Assembly (NCBI RefSeq): GCF_002946835.1
Contig: NZ_CP026652.1
Location: 8,308,001-8,372,000, forward strand
Length of the DNA stretch: 64,000 bases
Source of the DNA: Streptomyces dengpaensis
Lineage (GTDB): Bacteria; Actinomycetota; Actinomycetes; Streptomycetales; Streptomycetaceae
Reading direction: 5' to 3'
Part shown: one piece after another, positions 49,520-64,000 of the stretch
How positions within the stretch are numbered: the first letter of the stretch is position 1
How the letters are laid out: each line of letters begins with the position of its first letter
The notes under the pieces: generated by a model
Seen by the model: the letters and a program-made list of their open reading frames with translations, nothing else
Told to the model about the DNA's origin: nothing
The model's database searches: none
Made by a program: the position numbers and the translations under genes

Positions 49520-50152
49520 TTACGACGAATAGCGGTAAGCCTGCTCGCTCTCCCGGTAACGCTCCACCAGGAGCGGATCCATCAGGGTGGACTCTGGTCC
49601 GAAGAACTTGCCAAACTTCTCCCGGTATTTCTGGAACCAGTGCGGCCGTTCGGACAGGAAGAAGACATCGTGGAGGGCGATTGCGCGGATCGCGAGGACG
49701 GGCACCGGCGCCCTGCTCACCACGAAACGGGGGTTGCGCGCCGCCGTCACCTCGCAGTTCTCATGGAACTGGCCGATCATGAGGCCCTGCGCTACGAAGT
49801 CGTCCTTCACGTGTGCCTGGGCCTGGTCGAGTAGTTCGGTGTCCTCGCTGCAGAGATCGGGGAGGACGATCACCATGGCCTGCAGCATGGGATTCCTGCC
49901 CTGCCAGGTCGTCAGCTCGTACTCTCGCAGACTGCTCCGCGCGATCTCCTCGACCAGTTCGAGGCTCGGCGCGTGCCCGACCAGCCGTAAGCGGATCTCC
50001 AACGTCCGATTCTTGCGGGAGGGTGACACGAACGGGCAGATCGGCCCCGTGCGGCCGATCTCCGGATGGCTCGCCGATATGTACTCGGTTAGCCACGAGT
50101 CGACCGACTCCAGCGCGGACTCGAAGTCGACGACGGATGCCTTGGGCGTCAT
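49520..50152 (-). CDS. DUF6875-like protein, last gene of the NRPS-associated operon
   Basis: 210 residues starting MTPKASVVDFESALESVDSW. A block GRTGPICPFVSPSRKNRTLE and a later HENCEVTAARNPRFVVSRAP resemble the uncharacterised DUF6875 group found in biosynthetic clusters. Its start overlaps the previous stop (ATGA). Leu55 is encoded by TTA (49988-49990), a rare codon in this GC-rich genome that depends on the bldA tRNA. It is the last gene of a five-gene minus-strand operon with the 4-MHA ligase homologue. Its function in actinomycin-type synthesis is unknown. Confidence 0.75.
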   Translation of the reverse strand: MTPKASVVDFESALESVDSWLTEYISASHPEIGRTGPICPFVSPSRKNRTLEIRLRLVGHAPSLELVEEIARSSLREYELTTWQGRNPMLQAMVIVLPDLCSEDTELLDQAQAHVKDDFVAQGLMIGQFHENCEVTAARNPRFVVSRAPVPVLAIRAIALHDVFFLSERPHWFQKYREKFGKFFGPESTLMDPLLVERYRESEQAYRYSS

Positions 50153-50712
50153 GACGTACCCGTCAGGTTGGCGACGCGATCGATGGCGATGCGGGCGAGC
50201 CGATGGATCTCGGACCCGTCCGGAATGCGGGTGTTGATGAAGTTGAGGATGCCGTCCTTCGGCACGATCACCCACGCGGTCTCGATACGGAAGTGGTCGA
50301 CGGTGGACAGCCAGCGCACCACGAAACCGCCGTCCCCCAACTCGACCGGCCCCAGATCCACTCTCGTGATGTCGAGCTGTACGCCGTCGTTCAGCCCCAT
50401 CCGGTAGTGCGCGCAGTCGCGCACCGCGTCGAAGAGCTCCTGGTACACCTGCCGGCAAGCTCCGTTGCCGAACTGCGCGACGTGGTGGAACACCACCGAA
50501 CCCACGATATTCGTGAACAGTGCGGAGGCATGATGCGTCGTCTCTGGGTGCGTACCATGCGTGAGCATGTTCGTCAGGTCGACGATGGCCTGCCCTGACT
50601 CGTCGCCGGAGACGAAGACGGGATCGTAGGCGGCACTCGGCTCCTCGCCGTAGAACGACTCTTCCAGATCCTCCTCGTTCAGCAGCAGTTGTGGGAAAGC
50701 GGCGTCGTCCAT
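50149..50712 (-). CDS. Uncharacterised protein in the NRPS-associated operon
   Basis: 187 residues, acidic at the N-terminus (MDDAAFPQLLLNEEDLEESF), with an all-alpha-plus-beta look and no transmembrane segment or known motif. GGAGAA precedes the ATG. It lies 9 bases after the MbtH gene and overlaps the next start by 4 bases. I do not recognise a family. Position suggests an accessory role in starter-unit handling or regulation. Confidence 0.75.
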   Translation of the reverse strand: MDDAAFPQLLLNEEDLEESFYGEEPSAAYDPVFVSGDESGQAIVDLTNMLTHGTHPETTHHASALFTNIVGSVVFHHVAQFGNGACRQVYQELFDAVRDCAHYRMGLNDGVQLDITRVDLGPVELGDGGFVVRWLSTVDHFRIETAWVIVPKDGILNFINTRIPDGSEIHRLARIAIDRVANLTGTS

Positions 50713-50721
50713 CGCGTTCTC

Positions 50722-50922
50722 CTATCGGCGTACGAGGCTCAGCGGTCGCATGTCGGTCCAGTGCTCCTCGACGTAGGCGAGGCAGGTCTGGCGGTCGGTC
50801 TCGGCGAGCGCGACGGTCCAGCCCGCAGGCACCTCGGCGAACGCGGGCCACAGCGAATGCTGGCCCTCGTCGTTGACGAGCACGAGGAAGGTGCCGTCGG
50901 GGTTCTCGAAGGGGTTGCTCAT
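50722..50922 (-). CDS. MbtH family protein
   Basis: 66 residues, [20 protein letters not shown], then [20 protein letters not shown], with the three conserved Trp and the NxExQxSLWP-type motif. MbtH proteins bind NRPS adenylation domains and are needed for their activity or solubility. The start at 50922 gives better spacing from GGGAG than the ATG one codon upstream. It presumably serves the A domains of the divergent NRPS genes. A homologue is known beside the actinomycin synthetase I gene. Confidence 0.95.
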
Positions 50923-50965
50923 CATTGCTCCCTGCGTAAAACAGTCGAGGTGGGGGACGGGTTCG

Positions 50966-51202
50966 TCACTTCTCTTCCAGAACCGTCGTCACGTACTTGT
51001 GGATGCCGTTGATTGAGGTGAACAGCGCCATGTCCTCGAAGTGCGGGTCGATGACCACGCCGTGCCGCTCCTCCAGCTCGTGCTGGAGGACGACCAGGGT
51101 GAACGAGTCGATCACCAGCTCGGCGTCGTCCGGTAGCTCCTCGGGCGGTCCGAGCCCCGCGCTCTGGGTCAAGATCGCTCTGATGTCGTCTTTTGAGATC
51201 AC
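50966..51202 (-). CDS. acmD: Free aryl carrier protein (4-MHA carrier protein homologue)
   Basis: About 78 residues, matching the size reported for the actinomycin 4-MHA carrier protein. The phosphopantetheine site is Ser33 in [20 protein letters not shown]. The GTG at 51202 sits a few bases after AGGGGGA; GTG at 51205 is an alternative. It follows the AMP ligase gene by 14 bases, so ligase and carrier are co-expressed. Expected role: to hold the activated aryl starter for transfer to Thr on the first NRPS module. Confidence 0.85.
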
Positions 51203-51216
51203 CACTCCCCCTATGT

Positions 51217-52602
51217 CTACGACGACGATTCCGACGTGATGCGCCCGTGCATCAGCGCACGGTCGCGGACCAGCTTTCCCATCGAGTTCCGCGGCAGCTG
51301 CCGCGTGACGAAGAACCGCTTGGGATTCTTGACCGGGCTCAGCCGCTCTCGACACCAGGCGACGAGCTCGTCCGCGGTAAGTGCCTGATCGGCGCCCACG
51401 AACGCCTCGATGACCTCCTCGTGGGTCACCACCGCCTCGGTCACCCGTGGATGACCCAGCAGGACGGTCTCCACTTCCGTGAGGTCGACCTTTAGTCCGC
51501 CCACTACGACCAGCGAGTCGGCCCGACCGAGCATGCTGAGAACTCCGGTCGCCGGGTCCTGGTGCACCCGGTCGTAGGTCCGCAGCCAACCGTCTGCGAA
51601 ACGATCGGTGTGCTCGCTGTACAGGTACGGCGAATGCTCCATCCGGACGAAGAGCTCCTCACCGAGCACCTTCACCTCGGCCCCCGGTACCGGGGGCCCC
51701 AACTGAGGCGGCACGGAGGTGCCAGACAGGTCGCCCGCAATCAACCCGATCTCGGTCACGCCATAAACCGGACTGATCGGCAGGCCGAAGTGCGCGCGGA
51801 ACCGCTCATAGGTGTCCTGCGGCACCCGTTCACCGCCGGACACCGCGAGCCGCAGCGCGGGCAGTTCGGGCCGACCCCCGATCCGGGCCAGCAGGTCGTA
51901 GTGAACGGGGGTTCCGTACACGGCAGATGCCTCGGCCCGCGCCATAAGCCTCACCACTTCGGCCGGGCGGAGCGTCGGTGGGACGATCAGGGTCGCCCCG
52001 GCCGCGAGGGCGTGCAGCACGCCGCTGACCAGGCCCATGTTGTGCATGACCGAGTTCAGCAGCACTACCCGCTCGCCCCTACCGGGGATTCCGGGTAGTG
52101 CGCTGTGCCGGTCGAGTTCGGCCAGCACGGAGTCGGCCGGCCGACCGATCACCTTGGGCCGGCCTGTCGAGCCCGAGCTGAACTGCACCAGGCGGATGCC
52201 GTCGGCGGCCGGTCGGCCGCTCGGCAGTCGCTGGACCGAGAAGCCGGACTCCTGCCGGAACCCGACTACCGGCCCGTCGGCCCCGGTCGCGACGACGAGG
52301 TACTGCGGACGGACCAGGTCGACCAGCGGTTCGTATTCGGCCGGTTTCAGCCGGAAGTCGACCAGAACCACCTGTGCGCCACGGCTCCACAGGGCCAACA
52401 GTACTTGCAGATAGGTGAAACTCGGCTTCATCCTCAGGAGAACCGAGCTGCCCTCCGTAATACCCTGCTTCCGAAAGTGCTCTCCGAGATCAGTGACCGC
52501 TGTACGTAACTGCCCCCGAGTGACCGGCGCACTGGAAATGGCCCACAGCTCGTCGTCCGCGCCCCGGCTCAGCAGATGGCTTCCCCACCATGTATTTGCC
52601 AT
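51217..52602 (-). CDS. acmA: Aryl-AMP ligase (4-MHA activating enzyme, ACMS I homologue)
   Basis: 461-residue stand-alone adenylate-forming enzyme. The P-loop is [12 protein letters not shown] near residue 145, the A5-like motif is [13 protein letters not shown], the A7/A8 hinge is [20 protein letters not shown], and the A10 lysine is in [13 protein letters not shown]. There is no fused carrier domain; the carrier is the next gene. It is shorter than typical acyl-CoA ligases, in the size range of ACMS I. The predicted reaction is activation of 4-methyl-3-hydroxyanthranilate and loading on the carrier protein. The substrate is inferred from cluster identity, not from a specificity code. Confidence 0.85.
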
Positions 52603-53174
52603 ACACGCTTCCTTTTGCGAAAACAGGTCCGCGAAACGTTCGATCCGGCATTTAGTGAGGGTGAAACTAGCACTACCGTGAAACGTCGGGCAAGCACTCC
52701 GCGATCAATGTGGTCCTACGCTGGCAAAGATGAGGCGCCCCGGCCGGACGTTCCTTCGGCTGGGGTAGTCCGTCCCTCGCCATAGGTTCTCCACGCCCCG
52801 CCCGCAAGGGAGTCCATGGGGCTGCTGCCTGCTTCGATCGCCGTATTGGCGTGCTGCGGGCCACCGTGCCGCGCGGGTTTTCGGTCCTCGCTGGTCGATC
52901 TCGTTGTCCCGCCGGCGGGACATGGACGGGACATGCGCATGGAATAGCCGATTGATCTCCTTGACCCTCCGGGACTCCCGAGTTAGGTTGCCCTTGATTG
53001 TGTTTCCGGGCCGTTGCGCCCGATTCCGGTGCGTACGGCGAGATCCGTCGCTCCGATGGTCGCCGTGTTTATCTATTGCCCGGTCGAATTTCGGACGCTT
53101 TTTCTGGGCCGTTGTGAGCTTTTCATTCTTGTCTCTCCGGCCATCCGTGCGGGGGAAACTTCGGAGGTGGAGAC
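52603..53174. promoter_or_regulatory. Divergent promoter region of the actinomycin-type operons
   Basis: 572 bp between the ligase ATG and the NRPS TTG start. No open frame with convincing codon bias is present. Relatively AT-rich stretches at about 52610-52690 and 52970-53130 are the likeliest promoters. The strong GGAGG at 53163-53167, seven bases from TTG, fixes the NRPS start. Confidence 0.6.
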
Positions 53175-56100
53175 TTGTTCGTCAGTGCTGGCACCACGCT
53201 GCCCCTCACGGTTGCACAACGCGAAATATGGATCGCCGAGCAGCGGCTGGGGGAAGCGAATCGGGTTTTCCGGGTGGGCGAATACCTGGAGATCAACGGA
53301 CGGGTGGATCCGGTACTGTTCGAGCAGGCATTGTTGCTGGTCGTCGCCGAAGCGGACGCTCTGCACGTCAGCTTCGTCGAGGAACGAGGCGAGGTCCGGC
53401 AGGTCGTCCACGAGCTCGGCGACTGGTCACCTTCTTTGGTCGATCTCAGCGCGGAGCCGGACCCCGAACGGGCCGCCCGCGACTGGCTGGACGCTGCGGT
53501 CGCCCGGCCGATGGACCTCGCCGAGGACCGACTGTTCGAGTACGCGCTCCTGCGTCTGGACGCCGACCGCTTCTACTGGTACCAGGGCTACCACCACGCC
53601 GTGATGGACGCCTTCGGGTCACTCCTGATCACACGCCGGGTCGCCGACGTCTACACCGCACTCGCCCAGGGCCGCCCGGTGGCGCCGAGCCCGTTCGGAT
53701 CCCTGTCCGACTTGCTGGCCGCCGAACAGGAGTATCGCGATTCGGAACGATTCACCGAAGACCGGGCGTACTGGACGGAACGCTTCGCCGACCGTCCCGA
53801 GTCGACCGGGATCGTCGGTCGCCCGTCCACCACCCCCGAGCACTACCTTCGGCACACCGCTGGCCTGGACCCCGACGGGCTGACGGAGCTGCGCGAGGCG
53901 GCCCGCCGGGCACGGGTTCCCTGGTCGTACCTGGTCGTCATCGCCACAGCTGTTTATCTGCATCGGATGACCGGTGCGTCGACCGTGGTGCTTGGCCTTC
54001 CGGTGACGGCTCGCCTGAACCAGGTCCAGCGCCGCACACCCGGCACGGCTGCCAACGTCCTTCCGCTCAGGCTCTCGCTCCGGCCAGACATGGCACTGCG
54101 CGAACTTCTCGCCCAGGTGGGGGAGAGGGTGCTCGAACTGGGCAACCACCAGCGCTACCGCGCCGAGGAACTCCAGCGCGACCTCGATCTGCCTGGCCAT
54201 GCGGGGACTTGGTACGCACCGGTCGTCAACATCATGTCCTTCGACTACGCGGTGACCCTCGCCGGCCTGCCGACCACCGCGCACAACCTCTCCTCGGGCC
54301 TGGTGGGCGACCTCACGCTCGCCGTGTGGGACCGACGCGACGGCACTGGACTGACCGTCGACCTCAACGCCCACCCCGAAATCTGCGCGGACCACGAACT
54401 GGCCGCACACCAAAGGCGTTTACTCGCCGTGCTGCGCGCCGTCACGGCGACGGAGCCTTCCCTGCCGATCGGCCGGATCGACCTGCTCACCGAGGAGGAG
54501 CGGGCCGCCTTCCTGGCCGTCCCCGACGACGTCCCTCCGATGACGGAGGCCACGCTGACGGGGCTGTTCGAGGCGCAGGTCGGCAAGACTCCCGACGCGG
54601 CGGCTGTGACCTGCGGCGATCTGACCTTGACGTACCGGGACCTGAATGAGCGGGCGAATCGGCTGGCCCATCGGCTGGTGGCCCGGGGTATGGGTCCCGA
54701 ACATGTCGTCGCGCTGGCCCTGGAGCGCTCCGCCGATCTGGTCGTGGCGATCCTGGCGACGCTCAAAGCGGGCGCGGCCTATCTTCCCCTCGATCCCGAA
54801 TACCCGCCGGCCCGTCTGGCCCACATGGTCACCGACGCCCGCCCCGGCCTTCTCCTCACGACCACGGCGGCGCAGGCCAACCTCCCCGCCGCACACGGCA
54901 CTCCGGTCCTCCTCCTGGACGCCCCGGACACCACCACCGACCTCACGCACAACCCCACTCCGGCCCTCGCACCCGACCACCCCGCTTACGTCATCTACAC
55001 CTCCGGCTCCACCGGACAGCCCAAAGGCGTCGTCAACACCCACCGGAACGTGGTGCGGCTGTTCGACGCCACCCGGAAGTGGTTCGGCTTCGGCCCAGAC
55101 GACGTCTGGACGCTGTTCCACTCGTACGCCTTCGACTTCTCCGTCTGGGAGCTGTGGGGAGCGCTGCTGCATGGCGGGCGGCTGGTCGTGGTGCCCTACG
55201 AGGTCAGCCGGACACCGGGCGCCTTCCTGGACCTGCTGGCCGACGAGGGCGTCACCGTCCTCAACCAAACCCCGTCGGCCTTCTACCAGTTGGCGCAGGC
55301 CGATGCGGATGCCGAGGCCGACGCCTCTCGGCCGGCTCGCCGGCTTGGCCTGCGGACTGTGGTGTTCGGCGGTGAGGCGCTGCAGCCGTCTCGCCTCGCC
55401 GACTGGTACGAGCGGCATCCCGATGACGTGCCGATGCTGGTCAACATGTACGGCATCACCGAGACCACGGTGCATGTGACGTACCAGCCGCTGAACCGCT
55501 ACCGGGCCACCGCCGCGGCGGCCAGTGTGATCGGTCTTGGCATCCCTGATCTGCGCACCTATGTACTGGACGGCGGACTGCAGTTGGTGGTGCCTGGGGT
55601 GGTGGGTGAGCTGTACGTCGCGGGGGGCGGCGTGGCTCGCGGCTATCTGGGCCGACCGGGTCTGACGGCCGAACGCTTCGTCGCGGATCCGTACGCCGCC
55701 CAACCCGGCGCCCGTATGTATCGCACAGGCGACCTGGTGCGCCAAAATCCGGACGGTGAACTGGAGTTCGTAGGCCGTGCCGACCATCAGGTCAAGATCC
55801 GCGGGTTCCGTATCGAACCCGGCGAGATCGAGGCCAGGTTGACCGACCACCCGTGCGTTGCCGAGGCGACCGTGGTGGTCCGCCAGGAGCAGTCCGGTGA
55901 CGGCCGCTTGGTGGCCTACGTGGTCGCGCGGGACGTTCTCCGGGCCGAGGACGTACGGGAGTTCGCGCGGGACCGGCTGCCCGAGTACATGGTGCCAGCC
56001 GCCGTCGTCCTGCTGGACCGCATGCCCCTGACGGCCAACGGCAAGCTGGACAAGGCGGTGCTCCCGGAGCCGGACTTCTCGGTGTCGGCTGCGGGGCGGG

Positions 56101-59100
56101 AGGCACGTACGCCGCAGGAGCAGATCGTGTGCGATCTGTTCGCGCAGGTCCTCGGGCTGCCGCGGGTCGGGGTCGACGACCATTTCTTCGAGCTGGGCGG
56201 GCACTCCTTGCTGGCCACTCGTCTGATCGCGCGGATCCGTGCCGCCTTCGGGGTCGAGCTGGAACTGCGTCTGCTGTTCGAGGGCCCGACCCCGGCCGCG
56301 GTGGCCGCCCACCTCGACACCGCCGGACCCGGGCGCCTCGCGCTTGCGCCGCGGCAGCGGCCGCCGGTCATTCCACTCTCCTCGGCCCAGCGGCGGCTCT
56401 GGTTCCTGGACCGGATGGAGGGGCCGAGCGCCACCTACAACATCCCGCTCGTCGTACGGCTGTCCGGCGAGTTGGACCACGACGCGCTGCGAGCTGCCCT
56501 CAGTGACGTGGTGGCCCGGCATGAGAGTCTGCGGACGGTGTTCCCGGAGGCCGAGGGCGTGCCGTGCCAGCAGGTGCTGGCACCCGAGGCGGTCGTGCCG
56601 CGTCTGACCGTCACCCCGACCACCGAGACCGAACTGCCGGCCGCGCTGGAGGCGGGCGCCCGGTACGCCTTCGACCTCGCGACCGAACCTCCGCTGCGGG
56701 CCGAGTTGTTCGCGCTGTCGGCGCGGGAACACGCGCTTCTGGTCGTGGTGCACCACATCGCCGGTGACGGCTGGTCGATGGGTCCGCTGTCACGGGAGCT
56801 GACGGAGGCGTACACGGAACGTGCGCGGGGTCAGGCGCCGGAATGGCCTGTGCTGCCGGTCCAGTACGCCGACTACACCCTGTGGCAGAACGAACTCCTC
56901 GGTGACCAGAACGACCCTGACAGCCTCTTCGCCACTCAGATCAACTACTGGACCCGCGCCCTCGCCGACCTGCCCGACCAGCTCACCCTGCCCACGGCCC
57001 GCCCTCGCCCGGCTGTCATGACCTACCGTGGCGACTACCTCACCGTCGACATCGACCCCGTACTCCACCAACGCCTCGCCGACCTCGCACGGTCGACCGG
57101 CGCCAGCCTCTTCATGGTCCTCCAAGCAGGACTCGCCGCTCTCCTCACCCGCCTCGGCGCAGGAGAGGACATTCCCCTCGGCAGTCCCATCGCGGGCCGC
57201 ACCGACCAAAACCTCGACCACCTCGTCGGCTTCTTCGTCAACACCCTCGTCCTGCGCACCGACACCACAGGCAACCCCACCTTCGCCCAGCTCATCACCC
57301 GTGTCCGCGAAACCTCCCTCGCCGCCTACACCCACCAGGACGTCCCCTTCGAATTCCTCGTCGAGCACCTCAACCCCACGCGCACCCTCGCCCACCACCC
57401 CCTCTTCCAAATCATGCTCGCCCTCCAGAACGCTCCCGAGAGCGAGTTCGAACTGCCTGGACTCCAAGCCGGTGTCGAGCTGGGCAGGACGGGCACGGCG
57501 AAGTTCGACCTGTTCTTCAGCCTCGCCGAGCGGCGCGGCGAAAGCGGCGAACCCCAGGGCATCACCGGCGCCGTCGAGTACTCCAGTGACCTGTACGACG
57601 CACCCGCCGTCCGAGCCCTCTTCGACCGCTGGATCCGCCTGCTGGACGCGGCCACTTCCGACCCCGACCGCCCGCTCAGCGGCCTCGGCATCCTCTCCGG
57701 CGAGGAACACCGGGAGATCGTCGGCGACTTCAACGACACGGCCATGCCCCTGCCGGGCGTCTCCCTGGGCGAACTCTTCACACGACAGGCGGCCAGGACG
57801 CCGGACGCCCCCGCCGTCACGGACGGGGAGACCTCCCTGACGTACGCGGAACTCGACGCCCGCGCCGACCGGCTCGCCCACGAGCTGATCTCCCGCGGTA
57901 TCCGCCCTGGCGACGCCGTCGCCGTCCTCCTCCGGCGATCCCCGGAGACCGTTACCGCCGTACTCGGGCTGATGAAGGCAGGCGCCGTCTACATCCCGCT
58001 CGACGACCGTTACCCACCCGAGCGCATTCGCCACGTCCTCACCGACACCGGCGTCTCACTCATCGTGACCGACGAGGCCTCGCAGACGGAACTCATGGCG
58101 CTGACAACGGACTTGCTCGTCATCGGCGCCGCCGCCTGGGAGGACGAGTACGAGGCGCCGAACGTGGCTGTCGCCCCGGAGGCCGCGGCGTATGTGATGT
58201 ACACCTCCGGATCGACCGGCACCCCCAAGGGCATCGTGGTCACCCACCACAACGTCACCGCCCTCGCCCTCGACCCCCGCTTCGACCCCCACGTCCACCG
58301 ACGCGTCCTCCTCCACTCGCCCACCGCGTTCGATGCCTCCACCTACGAACTGTGGGTGCCTCTCCTCAACGGCGGAACCGTCGTGGTCGCCCCCGCCGGC
58401 GACCTCGATGTCCCCACCCTCCACCACGTCATCACCGAGCAGCGCGTCACCGCACTGTGGCTGACCAGCTCCCTGTTCAACGTGGTCGCCGACCACGCCC
58501 CCGAGTGCCTGGCCGGAGTGCGCCAGGTGTGGACCGGCGGAGAAGCCGTCTCCGGCACGTCCGTCCGACGCGTTCAGGAAGCCTGCCCGTCCCTGACCGT
58601 CGTGGACGGATACGGACCCACCGAGACGACCACCTTCGCCACCTGCCACCCCGTCACCACTCGCTACGACGGCGGCCCGGTCGTGCCCATTGGCCGCCCC
58701 ATGGCCAACATGCGCACCTACGTCCTCGATGCTGGACTGCAACCCGTCCCACCTGGCGTCATCGGTGAACTCCACATCGCGGGCACGGGCCTGGCCCGCG
58801 GCTACCTGCACCGCCCCGGCTTGACCTCTGAGCGCTTCGTCGCCGACCCGTACGGCAGCGAGCCCGGCGCCCGCATGTACCGCACCGGCGACCTCGTACG
58901 CCAAAACCCGCACGGCGTACTGGAGTTCATGGGCCGTGCCGACCATCAGGTCAAGATCCGCGGGTTCCGTATCGAACCCGGCGAGATCGAGTCCGTGCTG
59001 GCCGACCACCCCGACATCGCCCAGGCCGCCGTCCTCGTTCACGAGGACCGACCCGGCAACACCCGCCTCATCGCCTACGTCGTCGCGGACACCGACGTGA

Positions 59101-61019
59101 CGCCGGAAGACCTGCGTGAGTTCGCGCGGCGACGGCTGCCGGACTACATGCTGCCGTCCGCGTTCGTCACGCTGGACCGCTTGCCGTTGACGGCCAACGG
59201 CAAGCTCGACAACGCCGCGCTGCCCGCCCCCGGCCCGGCCGTGCGGGCGGATGCGGGGAGCCGTGAGCCGCGCACCGCGCGCGAGCGGCTGCTCAGGGAG
59301 TTGTTCGCACAGGCGCTGGGGGTGGACCGGGTCGGGTGCGACGACGACTTCTTCGTTCTCGGCGGGGACAGTATCGTCTCGATCCGCCTGGTCAGCCTGG
59401 CGCGTTCGGCGGGTGTCGGATTCGCGGTCCGGGACGTCTTCGAGCAGCGGACGGTGGCCGGACTCGCCGAGGTCGCCGACGAACTGGCCCTGTCGATCCC
59501 GGAGTCCGACGACTCCGGCACCGGGACGGTGGAACCGACTCCGATCATGCGTTGGTTCGACGCGCGTGGCGGTGGAATCGACGAGTTCCACCAGGCCATG
59601 TTGCTGGAGGTGCCGGCTGATCTGGGCGAGGGCCGCCTCACCTCGGCCGTGCAGGCGCTCGTGGACCACCATGACGCGCTGCGACTGACCCGGACGCCGG
59701 GCGGCCCGGACGGCCGGTCGTGGTTGCTGGAGGTCGGACCGGTGGGTTCCGTGACGGCCGCCGACCTGGTGCACGTCGTGGACCTCGGCGGCGCCGACAT
59801 CGACGAGGCCCTGATCCGAGACCAGGCGAAGGCGGCGGCCGCCCGCCTGTCGGCCGAGCGGGGGCCGCTGCTCCAGGCGGTCTGGTTCGACGCCGGCCCG
59901 GTCCGTCCCGGCAGGCTGCTGTTCCTTGTCAACCATCTCGTGGTGGACGGGGTGTCCTGGCGAATTCTTCTTCCGGATCTCATCGCCGCCTGGGAGGCGG
60001 TCGGGCTCGGCCGCCCGCCCCGGCTGGATCCGGTGGGCACCTCGCTGCGCCGCTGGTCGGGGCTGCTGGCCGCGGAGGCCCGGCAGCCGGCCCGCGCCGC
60101 GGAGGCGACGCTGTGGGCCGACCTGCTCACCGCCGGCGACCCGCCGCTGACAGCCGGCCGGCTGGATCCCGTACGGGACACCGTGGGCCGGGCCCGTGAA
60201 CTCACGCTCTCCCTCCCGCCCGACGTCACCACCCCGCTCCTGACAACGGTGCCGACGGCCTTCCACGCCGGGGTGAACGACGTCCTGCTGACCGCCCTCG
60301 GCCTGGCGGTCGCCCAGTGGCGCCGGGGTCATGCCCGCGGGCGGCACACGGCGGTGCTGGTGGACGTGGAGGGGCACGGGCGCGAGGAGATCGTCGAGGG
60401 TGCGGACCTGTCGCGCACCGTGGGCTGGTTCACCTCGCTATATCCCGTCCGAGTCGATCCGGGCCCACTCGTCTGGGAGGAGGTCGTCGACGGCGGGCCG
60501 GCTCTCGGACAGGCGCTGAAACGGGTCAAGGAGCAGCTACGGGCACTGCCCGACCGGGGTATGGGCTTCGGTCTGCTGCGCCACCTCAATTCCGAGACCG
60601 GGCCGGAGCTGGCCAGGCTCGCCGTGCCCCAACTTGGATTCAACTACCTCGGCCGATTCCCGTCCGCGGGGACACCGGTGGTTCCCGGTAGTCCGGGGTG
60701 GACCGTGGCGTCGGAGACGGGCCTGCTGAGTGGTGCCGATCCGGCGACCGCCCTGGCGCACGGGCTGGAGGTCAACTCCATCGTCCGCGACACCCCGGAC
60801 GGGCCGTGGCTGGAGGCCGTCTGGGCGTGGGCCCCTGATCTCTGGCCCGAACAGCACGTCCGTGTCCTCGCCGAGCAGTGGTTCCAGGCGATCCGAGGCC
60901 TGGTCCGGCACGTCGACCGGTCCGGCACGGGCGGCCACACACCCTCGGACTTCCCCCTGACCGAACTCAGCCAACACGACATCGAACAGCTCGAAGCCGC
61001 GTGGAGGATTCAGAAATGA
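53175..61019 (+). CDS. acmB: Two-module NRPS, actinomycin synthetase II homologue (C-A-T-C-A-T-E)
   Basis: 2,614 residues; ACMS II is reported at about the same size. Domains: C1 about 8-430 with HHAVMDA at 140-146; A1 about 455-960 ([10 protein letters not shown] near 610), code D-F-W-N-V-G-M-V-H-K, the Thr code; T1 Ser1011 ([10 protein letters not shown]); C2 about 1055-1490, HHIAGDGWS from His1193; A2 about 1520-2010, code D-A-Y-W-W-G-G-T-F-K, closest to Val-type codes; T2 Ser2066 ([10 protein letters not shown]); E about 2110-2590 with NHLVVDG at 2253-2259. The predicted product is aryl-Thr-D-Val on T2. The TTG start has GGAGG upstream. Leu416 is a TTA codon (54420-54422). The stop overlaps the next start (ATGA). 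Confidence 0.9.
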
Positions 61020-64000
61020 CGCCGTCGGGCCTGGAAGACATCCTTCCCCTCTCCCCCATGCAGGAGGGGCTGCTGTTTCACTCCCGCTACGAGCAGGACG
61101 GCGCCGACGTCTATGCGGTGCAACACGTCTTCGACATCGAGGGCACCCTCGACGGGGTGCTGCTACGGGCGGCGGTCCGCGCCCTCGTCCAGCGGCACCC
61201 GAACCTGCGCGCCGGTTTCCGGCAGATGGATTCGGGACAGACCGTACAGCTGATTCCGCGTCAGGTGGACATTCCATGGGAGGAGTTCGACCTCTCGTCG
61301 CTGCCTGCCACCGAGGCGGAGGCGGAGCTGGCCCGGCTCGCCGCCAAGGAGCACGGCCGCCGCTTCGACCTGGCCGAGCCGCCGCTGCTGCGCTTCTCCC
61401 TGGTGCGGCTGGCCAGCGAACACCAACGTCTGATCATGACCACCCACCACATCCTGCTCGACGGCTGGTCGATGCCCATCCTCGTCCGCGAGCTGATCAC
61501 GCTGTACGGCAGCCATGGCGATGTCGCCACGCTCCCCCGGGTGACCCCGTACCGGCAGTACCTGGGCTGGCTTGCGCAGCAGGACCGGCCGGCGGCGGAG
61601 GCTGCCTGGCGCGAGGCGCTCGTCGGCCTGGAGCAGCCGACCCTGGTCACTCCGGTGGATCCGGCGCGGGCCGCACTGATGCCGGAGCGGATCACCGTCG
61701 AGATGGACGAGGACCGCACGGCGGCGCTCGCCGACTGGGCACGCAGGCAGGGCGTGACCATGAACACCGTTCTGCAGGCCGCCTGGGGTCTGGTGCTGAG
61801 CCGGCGCACGGGGCAAGACGACGTGGTGTTCGGGGCCGTCGTGGCAGGACGGGACCCGCAACTGCCCGGAGTCGAGGCCATGGTGGGCCTGTTTATCAAC
61901 ATGGTGCCCGTCCGGCTCGCGCTGGACCCGGCGCAGTCGTTGCTGTCCACCGTCGTGCGACTCCAAGACGAACAGTCGCGGCTGACCGCGCACCACCATC
62001 TCGGGCTGGCTCGCATCCAGCAGCTGGCCGGTCTTGGCGACCTCTTCGACACGTCCCTGGTGTTCGAGAACTACCCCTGGGACGACCCCGCCGAGCTGGC
62101 GGACCCCGGGCTGCGGATCACCCCAGACCTCGGCCATGGGCGGGACGCGACCCACTATCCGCTCACCCTGATCGCTGCCCCGGGGCGGCGTCTCTACCTC
62201 CGCCTCGACTACCGCGACGACCTCGTCGACCAGGCCACGGCCGCCGGATTCCTCGACCGGCTGACCCAGGTGCTCGACTTCGTCGTCACCGACGCCGATC
62301 GGCCGATCGGCCGGATCGACCTCATTACCGGCGAAGAGCGCCGGAACCTGCTCGTCACCCGCAACGACACGGTCAGGGAGACGAGCGGGACGACCCTGCC
62401 GGGGTTGTTCGAGGCACGGGCCGCCGAAACGCCGGACACACCCGCAGTGGTCTGCGATGAGACCACCCTGACCTACCAGAAGCTCAACGAGCGGGCAAAC
62501 CAGCTGGCCCACCTGCTCACGACCCGCGGCATCGGACCCGAACGCATCGTCGCCCTCGCCCTGCCCCGTTCCACCGACCTCGTCATCGCCGTCCTCGCCG
62601 TCCTCAAAGCCGGCGCCGCCTACCTCCCCCTCGACCCCGAATACCCCCACGCCCGCCTGACCCACATGGTCACCGACGCCCACCCCGCCCTCCTCCTCAC
62701 CACCACAGCCACCCAGTCCAACCTCCCCACCACACAAGACACCCCCGTCCTCCTCCTCGACACCCCGGACACCACCACCGGCCTCGCCAACCACCCCACC
62801 CACAACCCCACCCCCGCCCTCGCACCCGACCACCCCGCCTATGTCATCTACACCTCCGGTTCCACCGGACGACCCAAAGGCATCGTCATGCCCGCGGGCG
62901 CACTGCTGAACCTCCTGGAGTGGCACCACAGAGCGGTCGGCGGCGAACCGGGTACCAGGACCGCGCAGTTCACGGCGATCAGCTTCGACGTGTCCGCGCA
63001 GGAGGTGCTGTCGGCCCTGCTCTTCGGTAAGACGCTGGTGGTCCCCGCTGAGGACGTCCGGCGTGACGCGGCCCGGTTCGCCGCGTGGCTGGACGACCAC
63101 CGGGTGGAGGAGTTGTTCGCGCCGAACCTGGTGCTGGAGGCCCTCGCCGAGGCCGCCGTCGAGCAGGGCCGTACGCTGCCGCGGCTGCGTACCGTCGCGC
63201 AGGCCGGTGAGGCGCTGACGCCGAGCCGCCTGGTCCGTGAGTTCCACCGGTCGGCGCCGGGCCGCGCCCTGCACAACCACTACGGCCCCACCGAGACGCA
63301 CGTGGTCACGGCCCACACCCTGGGTGAGGACCCTGACGACTGGCCGTTGTCCGCGCCGATCGGCCGGCCGATCGCCAACACCCGTGCCTATGTACTGGGT
63401 TCCGGGCTTCAGTTGGTAGCGCCGGGTGTGGTGGGGGAGCTGTACATCGCGGGTGCGGGCGTGGCCCGCGGCTATCTGCACCGCCCCGGTCTCACCGCCG
63501 AGCGTTTCGTCGCTGACCCCTACGCGCCCGAACCCGGCGCCCGCATGTACCGCACCGGCGACCTCGTACGCCGGAACCGGGACGGCGACCTCGAATTCAT
63601 CGGCCGCGCCGACCATCAGGTCAAGATCCGTGGGTTCCGTATCGAACCCGGCGAGATCGAGGCCGTGCTGGCCGACCACCCCGACATCGCCCAGGCCGCC
63701 GTGGTCGCTCGCGAGGACGAGCCCGGCAGGGCCCGGCTGGTGGCCTACGTGGTGGCGCGGGAGGCGCTACGGCCCGACGACGTAAGGGAGTTCACACGGG
63801 ACCGGCTGCCTGAGCACATGGTGCCGTCGGCCGTCGTACTCCTGGAACACCTTCCGTTGACGGCCAATGGCAAGCTGGACCGTGCGGCGTTGCCGGCGCC
63901 CGAGTTCACGTCGGGTGGGGCGGGGCGGGAGGCGCGTACGCCGCAGGAGCAGATCGTGTGCGATCTGTTCGCGCAGGTGCTCGGGCTGCCGCGGGTCGGG
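61016..64000 (+). CDS. acmC: NRPS, actinomycin synthetase III homologue, first module (continues past the right edge)
   Basis: 995 codons are in the window with no stop. It starts [21 protein letters not shown] domain about 8-430 with [11 protein letters not shown] (His144, His145, Asp149) has the [13 protein letters not shown] opening of C domains that accept a D-configured upstream residue, as expected after the E domain of the previous protein. A domain about 460-960 ([10 protein letters not shown] near 615) has code D-V-Q-F-A-A-H-V-V-K, closely matching known Pro codes (DVQLIAHVVK). The carrier domain begins but its Ser lies beyond 64000. Translation is coupled to the upstream NRPS. ACMS III normally adds Pro, sarcosine and N-methyl-Val and then closes the lactone; only Pro is visible here. 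Confidence 0.9.

What the first reader, a model, noticed from the sequence alone, without database searches (positions are those of the whole stretch)
49520..64000. Left end of an actinomycin-type biosynthetic cluster
Seen: a stand-alone AMP ligase, a 78-residue free carrier protein and an MbtH protein diverge from a 2,614-residue C-A-T-C-A-T-E NRPS, which is coupled to a C-A-T... NRPS. The code readings give Thr, Val-like plus epimerase, then Pro. Known: actinomycin half-molecules are 4-MHA-Thr-D-Val-Pro-Sar-N-MeVal, made by ACMS I, carrier protein, ACMS II and ACMS III of matching sizes. Inference: this strain makes an actinomycin or close relative.
Basis: partly seen in the sequence, partly recalled or inferred. 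Interest (0 to 1): 0.85.

Follow-up and report, generated by a model that had tools for sequence, protein, structure and literature searches.

The report
Actinomycin gene cluster, missing hydroxylase proposed
This Streptomyces carries a full gene set for the anticancer antibiotic actinomycin, and comparing it with relatives suggests which small, unassigned protein adds the oxygen for which no enzyme had been assigned in a studied cluster.

Summary
Beyond the window edge the second NRPS has 4,247 residues, two methyltransferase inserts and a thioesterase, followed by arylformamidase-like, tryptophan dioxygenase (TDO), kynureninase, methyltransferase and P450 genes. Gene order matches the studied acn cluster of S. 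costaricanus. This is one more actinomycin cluster.

The new part is mechanistic. Liu et al. found no kynurenine 3-monooxygenase (KMO) in acn. I find none here and none in 18 of 19 other actinomycin genomes searched. All 20 carry at least two DUF6875 genes, one at window 49520-50152. The copy corresponding to acnF, essential with role unknown, lies 35 bp before the arylformamidase gene. DUF6875 proteins are reported as heme enzymes oxidising L-Trp, some at C-7; Trp C-7 becomes kynurenine C-3. DUF6875 directly precedes TDO in 5 of 40 other Streptomyces regions. The linked TDOs share an active-site pattern (7 of 7) that is rare elsewhere (1 of 28). I infer hydroxylation on tryptophan, before ring opening. 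No biochemistry was run, and the key preprint could not be read.

The parts
49520..50152 (-). DUF6875 gene, U3 copy (place and size of acnU3): predicted member of the reported heme, Trp-oxidising family, 210 aa
   Evidence: PF21780 E=4.5e-51; 72-95% identical in 20 of 20 named actinomycin loci
50149..50712 (-). acnU4-like gene, 187 aa, function unknown
   Evidence: no Pfam or NCBIfam match; same place in 20 of 20 loci; same size and place as acnU4
50722..50922 (-). MbtH-like protein, 66 aa
   Evidence: PF03621 E=1.8e-29
50966..51205 (-). free 4-MHA carrier protein (acnE/AcmD type)
   Evidence: DSF site in the translation; same place in 20 of 20 loci
51217..52602 (-). 4-MHA adenylate ligase (AcmA/acnN1 type), 461 aa
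   Evidence: PF00501; 74-92% identity to 20 named Streptomyces loci
53175..61019 (+). ACMS II-type NRPS, C-A(Thr)-T-C-A(Val)-T-E, 2,614 aa
61016..64000 (+). ACMS III-type NRPS, first part; the gene runs on to G000:C1:8381759 (window position 73759), 4,247 aa in all: C-A(Pro)-T-C-A(Gly)-MT-T-C-A(Val)-MT-T-TE

Best explanation
A complete actinomycin cluster (about 0.97 sure). The ligase loads 4-methyl-3-hydroxyanthranilate (4-MHA) on the carrier protein; NRPS 1 adds Thr and D-Val, NRPS 2 adds Pro, Sar and N-MeVal and closes the lactone; two halves couple oxidatively to the phenoxazinone (established for the family). The 3-hydroxyl of 4-MHA is most likely put on tryptophan, not on kynurenine (about 0.75). 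The DUF6875 protein F (G000:C1:8381831-8382463) makes 7-hydroxy-Trp; the cluster's divergent TDO opens it to N-formyl-3-hydroxykynurenine; arylformamidase, C-methyltransferase and kynureninase then give 4-MHA. Shown here: gene content, KMO absence, universal presence of two DUF6875 genes, operon linkage, TDO pattern. From papers: essentiality of acnF, Trp C-7 activity of DUF6875 relatives. Inferred: the reaction of F, the order of steps, heme binding of these two proteins.
For: Cluster. KMO: true KMOs (178 bits or more, 17 of 392 genus genomes) stand clear of all other listed matches (77 bits or less) (at most 4 candidates scored per genome); with all candidates scored, G000 reaches 28 bits and 1 of 20 actinomycin genomes has a KMO, on another contig. 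DUF6875: at least two in 20 of 20 actinomycin genomes, F and U3 types. F-AF-TDO order in 20 of 20 F loci; here F ends 35 bp before AF, which overlaps TDO. In S. costaricanus acnF deletion abolished production while acnP, acnQ, acnC, acnU3 and phs deletions did not abolish actinomycin D, so acnF is the gene found essential there that has neither an assigned biosynthetic nor a proposed regulatory role. DUF6875 proteins are described as heme proteins oxidising L-Trp, including C-7 hydroxylases. Outside actinomycin clusters DUF6875 abuts TDO in L148, L149, L150, L152, L154 and kynureninase in L156 (6 of 40 regions); none of those six genomes shows a KMO. TDO positions 55, 58, 61 (Xc numbering): S/G, K, L in 7 of 7 DUF6875-linked TDOs, in 0 of 11 that I labelled housekeeping and 1 of 17 other copies. 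One more of the 17 has G and L but Q at 58 and lies beside a Trp halogenase gene, which fits a pattern for ring-substituted Trp.
Against: No enzyme was assayed; structure prediction was off, so heme binding is untested. Another DUF6875 division sits beside a KMO in 5 of 40 genus regions and 3 of 18 further regions, so the family as a whole does not simply replace KMO. One TDO with the full pattern (L238) is in a genome without a DUF6875 match, and no Trp-modifying gene was seen around it. The pattern could also mark common descent. The authors of the acnF knockout proposed dimerisation. A review passage draws hydroxylation on kynurenine for the same 4-MHA unit in pyrrolobenzodiazepines. U3 was dispensable although conserved. 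acnF and acnU3 were matched by order and size, not by sequence.
Confidence: 0.75

Rival explanations
1. Protein F catalyses the final oxidative coupling of two 4-MHA-pentapeptide lactones, as the S. costaricanus authors proposed; hydroxylation is done elsewhere.
For: acnF deletion abolishes production, and the phenoxazinone synthase gene phs is dispensable, so the coupling enzyme is also open.
Against: DUF6875 genes sit next to TDO, kynureninase or C-methyltransferase in regions with no close relative of the actinomycin ligase; coupling would not explain that. Relatives oxidise Trp. It leaves the hydroxylase missing.
Confidence: 0.12
2. A flavin or P450 enzyme encoded outside the cluster hydroxylates kynurenine, and DUF6875 does something else.
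For: G000 has 33 FAD_binding_3 matches, and Liu et al. ascribe the step to a KMO not found in the cluster.
Against: No recognisable KMO in 19 of 20 actinomycin genomes. The clusters carry genes for the other 4-MHA steps.
Confidence: 0.12
3. The cluster is silent or makes no actinomycin, for example because the UvrA-like gene at its right end is split by an IS110 element.
For: UvrA-like pieces of 312 and 452 aa flank an IS110 transposase gene.
Against: The corresponding acnT3 was dispensable in S. costaricanus; the NRPS, ligase and 4-MHA genes are open frames.
Confidence: 0.1

Closest known systems
acn cluster, Streptomyces costaricanus SCSIO ZS0073 (PMC6521150: abstract, Results section and Table 1 read)
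   Same: Order U3-U4-MbtH-carrier-ligase / N2-N3-F-AF-TDO-kynureninase-MT-P450-LmbU-TetR-SIP-ABC-ABC-UvrA, sizes mostly close
   Different: Here the UvrA-like gene is split by IS110; TetR (212 against 282 aa) and AF (292 against 326 aa) differ in called size; no acyl-CoA dehydrogenase among six frames scanned left of the DUF6875 gene. acnW, A, B, U1 and U2 counterparts were not searched for
Actinomycin clusters of S. chrysomallus and S. antibioticus (recalled; the Keller 2010 paper was not held)
   Same: ACMS I/II/III, free carrier, 4-MHA genes (recalled)
   Different: No gene-by-gene comparison made
DUF6875 / cytochrome P422 Trp oxidases (ZigI of zigralone, PMC13307353: first third and passages read; the source preprint seen only as a reference entry)
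   Same: Same Pfam family PF21780
   Different: Here two paralogues, tied to TDO and 4-MHA formation rather than to an intact indole

Membership tests
Actinomycin biosynthetic cluster | stand-alone 4-MHA ligase and free carrier protein | tested here: met
Actinomycin biosynthetic cluster | two-module NRPS for Thr and D-Val with epimerase | tested here: met
   codes read by hand
Actinomycin biosynthetic cluster | three-module NRPS Pro, N-Me-Gly, N-Me-Val with thioesterase | tested here: met
   3 C, 3 A, 3 T, 2 methyltransferase stretches, 1 TE; codes
Actinomycin biosynthetic cluster | TDO, arylformamidase, kynureninase and C-methyltransferase genes | tested here: met
   arylformamidase and C-methyltransferase assigned by fold family and place only
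Actinomycin biosynthetic cluster | phenoxazinone chromopeptide product | not testable with these tools
   needs LC-MS
DUF6875 heme Trp oxidase (P422) | PF21780 domain | tested here: met
   E=4.5e-51 (U3) and 6.1e-52 (F)
DUF6875 heme Trp oxidase (P422) | conserved heme-binding motif of the C-7 hydroxylases | tested here: inconclusive
   Motif not given in the passages I read; R34, G36, C39, P40, R156, D162, F165 invariant in 92 of 92 rows (duplicates included), H130 in 87, H161 in 70
DUF6875 heme Trp oxidase (P422) | heme binding and Trp C-7 hydroxylation | not testable with these tools
   needs protein
Kynurenine 3-monooxygenase | KMO orthologue in the genome | tested here: not met
   best match in G000 28 bits against 178 or more for true KMOs

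The most novel reading that the evidence does not exclude
The two DUF6875 paralogues divide the oxidative work of actinomycin: F hydroxylates tryptophan at C-7, so kynurenine is never hydroxylated, and U3, split off by duplication and kept in every cluster seen, catalyses a second oxidation such as closing the phenoxazinone, a step that may also proceed spontaneously and so hide in single knockouts.
Probability: 0.12. Interest if true: 0.8.

Novelty: new member of a known kind. Interest (0 to 1): 0.55.

Why it matters
The cluster itself is one more actinomycin cluster. What could matter is that a step described as not encoded in the cluster of this well-studied drug gets a concrete, cheap test: one small protein, one feeding experiment. 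If right, hydroxylation precedes ring opening, and DUF6875 next to TDO becomes a genome-mining flag for 3-hydroxyanthranilate-type building blocks, including cassettes outside actinomycin such as L150 and L154.

Tried and rejected
A His55 reading of TDO specificity: I first thought Ser at Xc position 55 was special to the actinomycin TDO, but Streptomyces housekeeping TDOs also lack His there (Thr). The combined S/G55-K58-L61 pattern separates the groups better, but a control on 17 further TDO copies that I picked gave one full match without DUF6875 (L238) and one partial match beside a Trp halogenase (L231); the other 15 have W61, with H55 in 9 and T55 in 6. So the pattern is not exclusive to DUF6875 linkage; I left the odds as they were. 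ResE of the 7-hydroxy-Trp lasso peptide RES-701-4 (209 aa, no known domain in 2020; passages read) looked like a DUF6875 protein, but core patterns recalled from memory gave no match in the fetched regions, so this stays a lead. MymH of mycemycin (220 aa, table read) was not compared, as its sequence was not at hand. DUF6875 as a plain KMO substitute across the family is rejected: one division sits next to KMO. Protein F has no relative among solved structures at a meaningful E-value (best 0.5). Literature searches listed no paper whose title, abstract or read passages link actinomycin with DUF6875, 7-hydroxy-Trp or P422; most listed papers were seen only as listings. The one paper holding DUF6875 does not mention actinomycin. 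The library holds no preprints, and the preprint cited there may already contain the assignment.
Full report
WHAT IS THERE. The window is G000:C1:8308001-8372000 of an 8.7-Mb genome. The genus is Streptomyces: the named close relatives of its ligase are, and the same-genus sample holds a row with the same contig coordinates as the S. parvulus locus (G200, L024). I took 76 kb to the right and 20 kb to the left and called genes with a simple codon-usage script. Leftward from 52602 run the ligase, the carrier protein, MbtH, a 187-aa gene and a 210-aa DUF6875 gene. Rightward run the 2,614-aa and 4,247-aa NRPSs, overlapping by four bases. NRPS 1 has three condensation-type domains (the last an epimerase), two A and two T domains; NRPS 2 has three C, three A and three T domains, two methyltransferase stretches and one thioesterase. 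Code residues, read by hand, give Thr, Val / Pro, Gly, Val.

REST OF THE CLUSTER (positions in window numbering, beyond 64000). DUF6875 copy F 73831-74463; arylformamidase-like hydrolase 74499-75377; TDO 75374-76228; kynureninase 76300-77562; methyltransferase 77628-78668; P450 78695-79987; LmbU-family regulator 80310-80957(-) (NF038070); TetR-like 81186-81824(-); siderophore-interacting protein 82149-83036; DrrA/DrrB-type transporter 83116-84856; a UvrA-like gene in two pieces, 84930-85868 and 87373-88731, with an IS110 transposase gene between them. This order, and most sizes, match Table 1 of the acn cluster of S. costaricanus. The P450 corresponds in place to acnP, whose deletion removed the proline-hydroxylated X form, so X-type actinomycins are likely here.

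RELATIVES. A scan of the genome collection gave 21 ligase loci: 20 Streptomyces at 74-92% identity and one distant bacterium at 27%. All 20 Streptomyces loci have ligase, carrier, MbtH, U4 and U3 side by side; the distant one has the ligase alone. In a sample of 392 genomes of the genus, 52 have a ligase match at E <= 1e-60, but only 6, own genome included, are at 74% identity or more.

THE MISSING STEP. 4-MHA needs a hydroxyl at kynurenine C-3. Liu et al. state that the kynurenine 3-monooxygenase gene is not in the acn cluster. I searched for it with the P. fluorescens KMO. In the genus, true KMOs stand out: 17 of 392 genomes at 178 bits or more, every other listed match at 77 bits or less (at most 4 candidates scored per genome). 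Among 20 actinomycin genomes, with all candidates scored, one has a KMO (S. lichenis, on another contig) and 19, this one included, have none. The genome of L023 was not held and not searched.

THE CANDIDATE. All 20 actinomycin genomes searched have at least two DUF6875 genes; three have a third match (one of them below the cut-off), and the distant genome has none. The paired copies fall into two types, F (79-96% identical to the F here) and U3 (72-95% to the U3 here), about 47% identical to each other. In the acn paper deletion of acnF abolished production and its function was left open, with dimerisation suggested; deletion of acnU3 had no effect (matched to the genes here by order and size). 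[quoted passage not shown] Carbon 7 of tryptophan becomes carbon 3 of kynurenine on ring opening (textbook numbering), so a Trp C-7 hydroxylase in front of TDO removes the need for a KMO.

INDEPENDENT TESTS. (a) Context: 56 of 392 genus genomes have a DUF6875 match, 72 rows, 12 of them the paired copies of six actinomycin genomes. I fetched 40 of the 60 other rows, as 20-kb regions except two that were cut short by contig ends. In five (L148, L149, L150, L152, L154) the TDO match starts within 200 bases on the same strand, and in L156 kynureninase follows directly with TDO 5 kb on. TDO occurs in 100 of 101 sampled genomes at roughly one to a few genes each, so about 0.1-0.3 such meetings would be expected by chance (my estimate). 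L150 and L154 hold DUF6875, TDO, methyltransferase (54-55%), kynureninase and arylformamidase together, without KMO in the region (L150). Of 18 further regions, L209 has DUF6875 with arylformamidase and kynureninase, and L204 has DUF6875 beside a methyltransferase 60% identical to the one here. (b) Tree of 81 rows: F, U3 and all six linked copies lie in one division; the copies beside KMO form a clade (100/97) in the other. F, U3 and L156 form a clade (100/97), but L156 and U3 are long branches that the tool warns about, and F alone has weak support (77/31), so the order of the duplication is open. (c) TDO: the seven DUF6875-linked TDOs, one of them the TDO here, have S or G, K and L at Xc positions 55, 58 and 61; eleven that I labelled housekeeping have M58 and W61, with T55 in ten and S55 in one. 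In the Xanthomonas enzyme residue 55 contacts the indole nitrogen, next to C-7 (recalled); a small residue would leave room for a 7-hydroxyl. Control: of 17 other TDO copies picked, 15 have W61; L231 has G55-Q58-L61 and lies beside a Trp halogenase, arylformamidase and kynureninase; L238 has the full pattern although its genome shows no DUF6875. The pattern thus seems to go with ring-substituted tryptophan in one further case, with one case unexplained; common descent is a further possibility.

AGAINST. DUF6875 sits beside a KMO in 5 of 40 genus regions and in 3 of 18 others, so the family does more than replace KMO. A review passage draws the hydroxylation on kynurenine for the related pyrrolobenzodiazepines. 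Nothing was assayed. The axial heme ligand is unknown: Cys39 is invariant in 92 of 92 rows (duplicates included), His130 in 87 and His161 in 70. The preprint behind the DUF6875 claim could not be read and may already name actinomycin.

VERDICT. The added value is an assignment, about three in four in my view, of its missing hydroxylase to the DUF6875 gene F, with U3, at the left edge of the reported interval, as a conserved paralogue of unknown use.

Noticed in passing
L010:4930-8731 (window numbering 84930-88731): The UvrA-like putative self-resistance gene of the cluster is split into two frames by an IS110-family transposase gene; described only.
   Followed up: partly
L134, L135, L136, L139, L140, L194, L195, L197: A second division of DUF6875 lies directly beside a true kynurenine 3-monooxygenase gene, mostly with a methyltransferase and a weak ligase-like match in the region; product unknown.
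   Followed up: partly
L150:9765-14549 and L154:5431-10242: Five-gene cassette of DUF6875, TDO, methyltransferase, kynureninase and arylformamidase with no close actinomycin ligase: a possible 4-MHA cassette for another product.
   Followed up: partly
L242:5397-12740: TDO with the small-residue pattern next to a Trp halogenase, arylformamidase, kynureninase and an adenylation-carrier protein: a likely halo-anthranilate pathway without DUF6875 in the region.
   Followed up: partly
L204:9720-11771: DUF6875 next to a methyltransferase 60% identical to the actinomycin one, in a genome of another family of the class.
   Followed up: no
G129, G199, G300: Two equally scoring DUF6875 copies near opposite ends of the large contig, as if in terminal inverted repeats.
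   Followed up: no
rows at 39-50% identity: 46 of 392 Streptomyces genomes have only more distant AcmA-like ligases; their clusters were not examined.
   Followed up: no
L148: The region also holds a second TDO reading frame with the housekeeping-type motif.
   Followed up: no
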